Source: Spiroplasma diminutum CUAS-1 (lineage in GTDB: Bacteria; Bacillota_I; Bacilli_A; Mycoplasmatales; Mycoplasmataceae). Taken from it: 64,000 nucleotides of DNA. This document shows positions 6,888 to 9,344 of this stretch, one piece after another. Location of the stretch: contig NC_021833.1 in the NCBI RefSeq assembly GCF_000439455.1, positions 372,001 through 436,000 on the forward strand. The letters are read 5' to 3'. Both the position numbers and the translations under genes were made by a program. A model generated the notes under the pieces. The model was not told the origin of the DNA and did not search any database. It worked only from the letters and a program-made list of their open reading frames with translations. Within the stretch, counting starts at the first letter, position 1. Every line of letters begins with the position of its first letter.

Positions 6888-7439
6888 ATGGCAACTGCAA
6901 AAAAACCTGAAAAAGCAGCAGTAAAAAGAGCTGCTTCAAATAAAAACAGAGCACAACATATTCAAACAAGAAAAAAATCAACTGATCCAAAGCCAGAAAA
7001 AATTATTAACAAAGATATTAAATTGAGCGATGGACAAGAAAAATTTATCTGAGAAAAAGCAGATCCAGTTTCAGCAACAAATGCATCTATTTATAGACAA
7101 GACATTGCTGGAGCAATTATTAAAATTAATGAATACGGTCAAGCTTCAGAATTTGGTTGAGTATATAGTTTAATTGATCCAGATGGAGAAAAAGATGACG
7201 TAAATAACGTTGTTGCTCTTCATTGAATGAATGCAAAAGTTAAACGTAAAGTAAACGAAAACTGAGTAGCTGTTGTTACAGGTGGAAGAGACGTTACAGG
7301 TCTTTTCAATCAAAAGAAAGAAACTAAAATTTCTGGTTTACAATTGAGTAAAACAAGAAAAACAGTTTTATTCCAACCATCAATAGTTGAACCTAAAAAA
7401 GTTAACATACAAATTAGATCAACTGTAGGAAAAAAATAA
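6888..7439 (+). CDS. Lys-rich protein with degenerate HNH-nuclease-like domain
   Basis: A 183-residue protein. Residues 1-40 are basic and disordered-looking. Residues 69-120 follow the order of a common HNH-nuclease subfamily: R-x-D-x-x-G-A-x-I ... Y-G ... F-G-W ... N-N-V-V-A-L-H-W-x-N-A-K-V-K. In active members the segment after G-W reads E-I-D-H-I. Here it is V-Y-S-L-I, so the catalytic Asp-His pair is missing, while the structural L-H-W-x-N is kept. I infer a nucleic-acid-binding protein that has lost cleavage. The motif comparison is from memory. Single-gene unit with its own promoter and terminator. Confidence 0.6.
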
Positions 7440-7473
7440 TAAAAAAACCTTACTATAAGTAGGGTTTTTTTAT
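7440..7473 (+). terminator. terminator after the HNH-like gene
   Basis: A-rich arm plus CCTTACT pairs with AGTAGGG followed by seven T's, directly after the TAA at 7437-7439. Confidence 0.8.
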
Positions 7474-7475
7474 TA

Positions 7476-7481
7476 TATAAT
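7476..7481 (+). promoter_or_regulatory. -10 element of the structured RNA before miaA
   Basis: TATAAT immediately after the preceding terminator. Transcription would begin near 7487-7489, just at the first hairpin of the structured RNA. Confidence 0.5.
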
Positions 7482-7487
7482 AATATT

Positions 7488-7608
7488 GTCCTTAGGGACG
7501 CCAAGAATATTTGTTATTCTTTATGTTTGCGTGAGATATTAAAGACCGCTCAATAAATAAGTATTTCCTTTCTCATGCATTTTATAGCGGGTGGGAATAT
7601 TTTTTTTT
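7488..7608 (+). ncRNA. unassigned structured RNA or riboswitch-like leader of miaA
   Basis: About 120 bases between a -10 box and a T run, ending 27 bases before miaA. Visible pairing: GTCC/GGGAC (7488-7497 region); ACGC (7498-7501) with GCGT (7529-7532) enclosing AAGAATA/TATTCTT (7503-7509, 7515-7521); and a 10-bp terminator stem AAGTATTTCC (7559-7568) with GGGAATATTT (7593-7602). ACCGCT (7545-7550) can also pair with AGCGGGT (7586-7592) in the terminator loop, forming a pseudoknot. It lacks the hallmark motifs of T-box, purine, TPP, SAM or SRP RNAs that I know. It could attenuate miaA or be a free small RNA. Confidence 0.5.
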
Positions 7609-7635
7609 GTCAATTTTTAGAAAGTAGGTAAAATT

Positions 7636-8591: not shown

Positions 8592-9344
8592 ATGTTGTCT
8601 GTTTACGAACGTGTAGAGAACTTAATTAAGGACAATAAAAATACTACTTTCAAATTAATAGGAAGACAAATTCTTACTGATTGATCTGTTGGAGTTTTCA
8701 AAAGTCAAAGTGAGATTAGTAAAACTTGCTTTGTTTCTTTAGCAACAGCAACTCAATTTGCAAAAGCTTGCTTATGTGAAGGTTATAAAGAGTTATCAAT
8801 AAGATTAAAAGTCGAATATGAAAGTGTTATGCAAAATAAAGCAAAAGCAAATGTGGAGAATGAAAGTGATTTAACAGGAATGAGATCAACTGTTAATGCA
8901 TGAGTAAATCAAAATGATAGTTTTCTTTATGATTTAGCTAACAAAATTAACGATAGAAGGAAAGTATGGATATGTCCATCGTATCAATCAATGTATCCTG
9001 CTAAGTTTTTAGAAGATGTATTAACGAATGTGGGAATTCAGACAAAAATAATTGATACTTCTATAAACTTAGAAGTCGGGAAACACTTAGAATTTAATAA
9101 TGAACTTATAATAGTTTTATTAACAGGAAGAGATACTGATACAACAGTTATTGCTTTAGAATATTTAATAAAAGCAAAAAATGAAATTTTTGTTATAACT
9201 ACTCCAAGTAATATATCAGAACTTCCTGAAATAAATGAGCAAAAACATATGCTTATAGATTTTCAAGATAATAACTTTTTCTATAAATATAGATGTTATG
9301 CGTTGATATCGTTATTTTTTTCTTTAAGTGAAAAAATAAACTAA
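8592..9344 (+). CDS. MurR/RpiR-family transcriptional regulator
   Basis: A 250-residue protein with an N-terminal RpiR-type helix-turn-helix (about residues 30-65: S-Q-S-E-I-S-K ... A-T-A-T-Q-F-A-K) and a C-terminal half (about 110-250) with the alternating strand-helix pattern of a SIS sugar-phosphate-binding domain. In this family the SIS domain senses phosphosugars to control sugar or amino-sugar genes. No sugar operon adjoins it, so the target is unknown. It lies 35 bases after miaA and may be cotranscribed. Confidence 0.8.

What the first reader, a model, noticed from the sequence alone, without database searches (positions are those of the whole stretch)
7476..7635. Orphan structured RNA with terminator pseudoknot before miaA
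A promoter, two nested hairpins, a free linker and a 10-bp terminator whose loop can pair with upstream ACCGCT form a compact switch-like arrangement 27 bases before miaA. It does not match the riboswitch classes I know. It could be a new leader sensing tRNA modification or a metabolite, or an independent small RNA.
Basis: seen in the sequence. Interest (0 to 1): 0.6.

Follow-up and report, generated by a model that had tools for sequence, protein, structure and literature searches.

The report
Pseudotrefoil RNA upstream of miaA
A knotted RNA of about 120 nucleotides, absent from the Rfam library, sits just before a tRNA-modifying enzyme gene (miaA) in nearly every spiroplasma relative examined that has the gene; it is probably a new switch or small RNA tied to that gene, but its trigger is unknown.

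Summary
The feature is real and unusually well conserved. A promoter (-10 at 7476-7481, inferred start 7488) drives a ~121-nt RNA ending in the U-run at 7600-7608, 27 nt before miaA. It occurs in all 20 genomes of the genus and 40 of 60 of the family, with no Rfam match. Across 25 distinct sequences three helices A, B, C cross one another in the order A-B-C-A'-B'-C' (a "pseudotrefoil"); each is 99-100% paired, with compensatory changes in 5/8, 1/5 and 6/9 pairs. Outside genus g8, helix C doubles as the terminator stem.

The link to miaA is strong. All 39 miaA-bearing family genomes have the RNA; 20 of the 21 without miaA lack it. It is adjacent to miaA in 38 of 40 genomes. Two of three unlinked copies carry a broken pair in helix B, against 0 of 39 linked copies. 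In 23 of 25 genomes outside g8 there is no usable promoter between RNA and miaA.

My best reading is a cis-acting leader/attenuator of miaA with unknown signal (about 0.5). The main rival is an independent small RNA (about 0.33), favoured by g8, where RNA and miaA look like separate units.

The parts
7476..7481 (+). -10 box TATAAT of the RNA promoter
   Evidence: TAWAAT-type box, exactly 6 nt, then the first base of hairpin H1 in nearly all relatives; matches the TAWAAT / 6-nt spacer / G-or-A start rule reported from mapped starts in three Mollicutes including Spiroplasma melliferum (PMC5138195). TSS at 7488 is inferred, not measured.
7488..7608 (+). the ~121-nt RNA, inferred TSS to end of U-run
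   Evidence: Conserved 81-99% in 20/20 genus genomes; divergent matches stop at the U-run; model R1 hits 40/60 family genomes
7488..7499 (+). H1: 4-bp hairpin with tetraloop at the extreme 5' end (UUAG here; UUCG, GNRA elsewhere)
   Evidence: 98% of cells paired, CG to GC compensation at pair 3-10; tetraloop types
7503..7521 (+). H2: AAGAATA/TATTCTT hairpin
   Evidence: Re-formed with different sequence in other genera (GATTAA/TTAATC in G024; ACGTT/AACGT in g8)
7528..7535 (+). helix A, 5' strand (TGCGTGAG)
   Evidence: 100% paired in A4, 5 of 8 pairs with changes on both sides
   Evidence: 99.2% paired, CG to UA compensation in G025; outward pairs at columns 62-115 and 63-114 also vary together
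7551..7558 (+). near-invariant A/U linker between B and C (TATAAAT-like)
   Evidence: invariant A66, A68, A69 of the first sequence
7559..7568 (+). helix C, 5' strand (terminator stem)
   Evidence: 224/225 cells paired, 6 of 9 pairs compensatory
7572..7579 (+). helix A, 3' strand (CTCATGCA), inside the terminator loop
7586..7590 (+). helix B, 3' strand (AGCGG), inside the terminator loop
7593..7602 (+). helix C, 3' strand (GGGAATATTT)
7600..7608 (+). U-run of the intrinsic terminator
   Evidence: 8-10 T in the 10 bases after C' in the 25 linked genomes outside g8; 3-5 in the g8 genomes scored
7636..8556 (+). miaA, tRNA dimethylallyltransferase (306 aa, code 4)
   Evidence: Pfam PF01715, E 9e-75; no usable TAWAAT between RNA and ATG

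Best explanation
A cis-acting leader RNA (attenuator) of miaA. SHOWN by comparison: the RNA starts with a capped hairpin directly downstream of a conserved -10 box, then folds H2 and three mutually crossing helices A, B, C (order A-B-C-A'-B'-C'); outside genus g8 helix C is also the stem of an intrinsic terminator just ahead of miaA, and no other consensus promoter for miaA lies in between in 23 of 25 such genomes. INFERRED: helices A and B complete before C' is transcribed, and C is part of the same interlocked fold rather than a disposable expression platform, since g8 keeps C covarying after losing the U-run. Polymerase would therefore stop when the whole fold closes and read through into miaA when it does not. 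A signal that stabilises the fold would turn miaA off; a signal or competing factor that keeps it open would turn miaA on. The signal (isoprenoid donor, unmodified tRNA, MiaA itself, or something else) is not known.
For: Adjacency upstream of miaA, same strand, in 38 of 40 genomes over five genera although genes on either side change. Presence follows miaA: 39/39 with it, while 20 of 21 without it lack the RNA, with at least two co-losses on the parE tree. B is broken in 2 of 3 unlinked copies (G044, moved ~47 kb by an IS-associated rearrangement; G563 contig C22) against 0 of 39 linked ones, p 0.0035 by simple draw. The terminator sits on the only evident route into miaA in g1/g4/g5/g9, as close as 16 nt from U-run to ATG in G005. 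The RNA is more constrained than the gene: 92% vs 76% nt identity, 58% at third positions.
Against: In g8 the U-run is lost, a separate terminator follows in most genomes, and several genomes have a TAWAAT box for miaA; spacing reaches about 200 nt in G035. The g8 RNA is nonetheless 95% identical pairwise. G025 keeps an intact RNA without detectable miaA, though a Shine-Dalgarno + ATG remnant suggests recent deletion and the draft is 85% complete. No alternative (anti-terminator) pairing was found conserved. Co-loss is confounded by adjacency: one deletion can remove both. No transcript data.
Confidence: 0.5

Rival explanations
1. An independent, stable ~120-nt small RNA acting in trans (or binding a protein), with its own promoter and terminator, which merely sits upstream of miaA; outside g8 leaky termination also feeds miaA.
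For: Fixed 5' end with a tetraloop cap hairpin; g8 RNAs end at a separate terminator and g8 miaA often has its own TAWAAT box; C is conserved in g8 without a U-run, so the fold matters apart from termination; G025 keeps an intact, compensated RNA without miaA; conservation stronger than the gene.
Against: Near-perfect linkage and co-occurrence with miaA; broken B helix in 2 of 3 unlinked copies; G025 looks like a recent deletion; no conserved single-stranded seed region other than the A/U linker.
Confidence: 0.33
2. A processive antitermination element (in the manner of put, EAR or LoaP-associated RNAs): the nascent fold acts on RNA polymerase and lets it pass one or more downstream terminators into miaA.
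For: The fold lies at the very 5' end of the transcript; in g8 one or two terminators lie between it and miaA while the linkage is kept.
Against: Outside g8 the fold's own helix C carries the U-run, which is more like a terminator than an antiterminator; no partner protein was looked for; the resemblance is by position only and recalled from memory.
Confidence: 0.06
3. A member of a described RNA family (T-box, known riboswitch, SRP, RNase P, tmRNA or 6S RNA, or the M. capricolum RNA MCS4).
For: AGCGGGTGG superficially recalls the T-box GGGUGG; MCS4 (recalled from memory) has a similar length.
Confidence: 0.05
4. A short leader peptide ORF (ATG 7523 under code 4) rather than an RNA element.
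For: An open frame of about 30 codons exists in this genome.
Against: The ATG is absent in many relatives, and 1-nt length changes and compensatory pair changes run through the frame.
Confidence: 0.01

Closest known systems
Transcription-attenuating riboswitches with a pseudoknot core (preQ1, SAM-II, fluoride types)
   Same: Compact pseudoknot directly upstream of one gene, overlapping an intrinsic terminator, strong conservation of a single-stranded A/U linker
   Different: No covariance match; here the terminator stem belongs to the conserved crossing core and no alternative pairing is conserved; ligand unknown
T-box leaders
   Same: Upstream of a tRNA-related gene, terminator, a GGGUGG string in some genomes
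   Different: No stem I or specifier loop, no UGGN in g8, no antiterminator; no Rfam match
Pseudotrefoil (ABCABC) pseudoknots, subclass 1C
   Same: Identical strand order of three helices; this pattern was found in 51 RNA sequences against 1688 ABAB and 365 kissing hairpins in a survey (PMC3390330)
   Different: Not compared in 3D; in this RNA one of the three helices doubles as a terminator; the three may not all form at once
Stable bacterial small RNAs with 5' cap hairpin and 3' terminator
   Same: Own promoter, capped 5' end, intrinsic terminator, ~120 nt
   Different: Bound to one gene's upstream region and to that gene's presence or absence

Membership tests
Any Rfam 15 family | Match at or above the family's gathering score | tested here: not met
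   No match over the RNA; in five further genera only tRNA reached significance
T-box leader | Stem I with specifier loop, and T-box UGGN in an antiterminator bulge | tested here: not met
   RNA begins with a 4-bp hairpin at the inferred TSS; the UGG string is absent in g8; no T-box match in the Rfam scans
Riboswitch | Conserved structured domain in the 5' region of the controlled gene | tested here: met
Riboswitch | Conserved alternative pairing between sensor and expression platform | tested here: inconclusive
   Helix C crosses A and B, so exclusion is possible, but C stays conserved in g8 where the U-run is lost
Riboswitch | Specific ligand binding without protein | not testable with these tools
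   needs in-line probing or similar
Independent small RNA | Own promoter and terminator | tested here: met
   -10 plus fixed 6-nt spacing; U-run or following hairpin; predicted only
Independent small RNA | Retained independently of a downstream gene | tested here: inconclusive
   G025 intact but probably recently unlinked; G044 and G563 C22 carry broken B
Pseudotrefoil pseudoknot | Three helices in the order A-B-C-A'-B'-C' | tested here: met
   Each helix supported by pair changes on both sides; simultaneous formation not testable here
MCS4 RNA of Mycoplasma capricolum | Sequence similarity | not tested
   Sequence not found in the paper library

The most novel reading that the evidence does not exclude
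A new class of regulatory RNA whose conserved core is a pseudotrefoil in which the terminator stem is itself one of the three interlocking helices, so that sensing and termination are one folding event, controlling tRNA i6A37 modification in spiroplasmas.
Probability: 0.3. Interest if true: 0.82.

Novelty: new variant of a known kind. Interest (0 to 1): 0.62.

Why it matters
Mollicutes have few transcription factors, so RNA-level control is a natural place to look, yet I found no miaA leader described for them in the papers I could search. This is a well-supported RNA family absent from Rfam, tied to a tRNA-modification gene, with a rare crossing topology in which helix C doubles as the terminator in most genera. 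If it is a switch, it would say what these minimal cells measure before modifying A37. If it is an sRNA, it is a conserved, untested regulator. Either way the question becomes directly testable in cultivable spiroplasmas.

Tried and rejected
Known RNA family: rejected by Rfam scans in six genera. T-box-like CCA capture by GGGUGG: rejected because g8 lacks it. Nested outer stem ACGC/GCGT: not conserved. Leader peptide: frame not conserved. MFE fold (pairs H2 with C'): contradicted by the comparative helices. An anticodon-stem-like motif around UAUAAAU as a MiaA substrate mimic: judged by eye, the positions matching A38 and U33 are not conserved, dropped. MCS4: no text with the sequence. Named species through genome contigs: the scan returned 80 non-Mollicute miaA loci, none with the RNA, so organisms remain unnamed; the window genome's size (945,296 bp) recalls S. 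diminutum, from memory only. A weak class-level hit (G364, E 0.005) lacks the H1, A and B pairings and was set aside. G563 C22 is in a MAG of another family, carries spiroplasma-like neighbours and foreign-looking sequence, and is treated as a probable mis-binned contig.

Full report
Observation. The window lies in a 945,296-base single-contig genome and miaA reads with code 4. Single-sequence folding is only mildly better than shuffles (z -1.9), and the MFE fold is not the comparative one. Rfam gives nothing at gathering score over the RNA, only chance-level matches when thresholds are dropped, and nothing in five other genera.

Conservation. BLASTN with the 165-base stretch finds it in each of 20 of 20 genomes of the genus, 81-95% identical among relatives, with the more divergent matches ending at the U-run. 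Over 19 pairs with the window genome the RNA averages 92% identity, against 76% for miaA DNA, 58% for its third codon positions and 72% for its protein. A covariance model (R1) finds it in 40 of 60 family genomes (genera g1, g4, g5, g6, g8, g9). A wider model (R2) finds nothing convincing in the 20 other family genomes (best E 0.19), and in 298 genomes of the order only those 40 plus one contig. It is absent from the miaA loci of 80 other bacteria.

Structure. A blind scan of all column pairs in the first alignment ranked C and A at the top and B among the few others with a compensatory change. A = 7528-7535/7572-7579, B = 7546-7550/7586-7590, C = 7559-7568/7593-7602. Each pair of these helices crosses: the strand order is A B C A' B' C', called a pseudotrefoil in a survey that found it in 51 RNA sequences against 1688 simple pseudoknots (PMC3390330). 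On 21 sequences A, B and C are 100% paired with both-side changes in 3, 1 and 4 pairs, while sliding the partners by 1-3 columns drops the whole structure from 96% to 44-55%. Adding genus g8, where A and C are rewritten and B is extended (A GTGTTTGGG/CCCAAGCAC, B AACCGCT/AGCGGTT, C AGTAACTCT/AGAGTTATT), A stays 100% paired with 5 of 8 pairs compensatory, B 99.2%, and C 224 of 225 cells with 6 of 9 pairs compensatory (I shifted the g8 partner column by one there, by eye). One further g8 copy outside that alignment (G039) has a mismatch in A by eye. H1 and H2 are also re-formed with other sequences.

Transcript ends. In nearly all relatives the -10 box is followed by exactly six variable bases and then the first base of H1. 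Mapped starts in three Mollicutes including Spiroplasma melliferum show a TAWAAT box, a most frequent spacer of six bases and a G or A start (PMC5138195). I infer a start at 7488 and a capped 5' end. This is not measured.

Relation to miaA. Of 60 family genomes, 39 have miaA and these 39 all have the RNA; the fortieth RNA genome is G025. In 38 of 40 the RNA lies directly upstream of miaA although neighbouring genes change. On a parE tree the RNA-less, miaA-less g3/g7/g11/g12 clade is nested between RNA-bearing groups, and g10 falls among g1, g5 and g6, so RNA and miaA disappeared together at least twice; a single deletion can remove both, so this is supportive rather than decisive. Repeated independent loss of MiaA in Mollicutes is reported (PMC4014445).

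Unlinked copies. Three are known. In G025 (85% complete draft) miaA is not found; the RNA is intact, with a compensated B pair, and is followed by a Shine-Dalgarno-like sequence and ATG and then tRNA-Gly, which looks like a recent deletion. In G044 an IS-associated rearrangement has put the RNA about 47 kb from miaA, in front of a thymidylate synthase-like gene, and a C-G pair of B has become A.A. On contig C22 of G563, probably a mis-binned spiroplasma contig, the RNA precedes a lipoprotein-like gene, B has an A.C mismatch, and C is partly broken by eye. B is broken in 2 of 3 unlinked and 0 of 39 linked copies (p 0.0035 by simple draw; the script could not read B in G024, which is intact; the test was framed after seeing the cases). 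G034 has a second linked copy in front of a disrupted miaA, counted among the 39.

Two architectures. Outside g8 the U-run follows C directly (8-10 T in 10) and 23 of 25 linked genomes have no usable TAWAAT between RNA and miaA; in G005 the start codon follows 16 bases after the U-run with a good Shine-Dalgarno. There, transcription must read through the terminator, or miaA must use a promoter I do not recognise. In g8 the U-run is degraded (3-5 T), most genomes carry a separate hairpin with U-run further down, and several have a TAWAAT box before miaA. My script stopped with an error before finishing the g8 genomes, so the promoter count there is incomplete, and such a box is fairly likely by chance in 100 AT-rich bases.

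Mechanism. Because C is maintained in g8 after the U-run was lost, I treat it as part of the fold, and propose that in the other genera closing the fold is what terminates transcription. A signal stabilising the fold would lower miaA; a signal preventing it would raise it. The crossing helices, linkage and lack of another promoter are shown by sequence comparison; the coupling, direction and signal are inference. Linker lengths would allow A, B and C to coexist by my hand estimate, but this was not modelled. The independent-sRNA view explains g8 more simply and cannot be excluded.

Novelty. No described family matched and none of the papers listed or read describes it; the library lacks most subscription papers and supplementary tables were not readable. 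I call it a new RNA family of a known kind (structured leader or small RNA) with an unusual topology.

Noticed in passing
window 7436-7476: A near-perfect inverted repeat (AAAAAACCTTACTATAAGTAGGGTTTTTT) ends the upstream gene, probably a bidirectional terminator, and abuts the RNA's -10 box.
   Followed up: no
window 6888-7439: A 183-aa protein without Pfam match is the upstream neighbour in most g1 genomes, and a relative by eye lies upstream of the G563 C22 copy; conserved but unnamed.
   Followed up: partly
window 8592-9344: RpiR/MurR-like regulator by eye, no Pfam match at 1e-3, downstream of miaA; lost together with miaA in G025.
   Followed up: partly
L019, L021, L022, L025, L065, L067 just downstream of the RNA: Genomes with a longer RNA-to-miaA spacer share an AT-rich imperfect hairpin with a TTTTTAAG-like start; possible second element.
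   Followed up: no
L106 and L108 (G034): A duplicated RNA+miaA locus in one genome, the second miaA copy disrupted by a stop and frame break.
   Followed up: partly
L139 and L140 (G044): IS3-like element copies at both ends of a rearrangement that separated the RNA from miaA, with part of the g8 terminator present on both sides.
   Followed up: partly
L163 (G563 contig C22): Contig in a MAG of another family that looks like a spiroplasma sequence with foreign, possibly insect, segments; probable mis-binning or chimera.
   Followed up: partly
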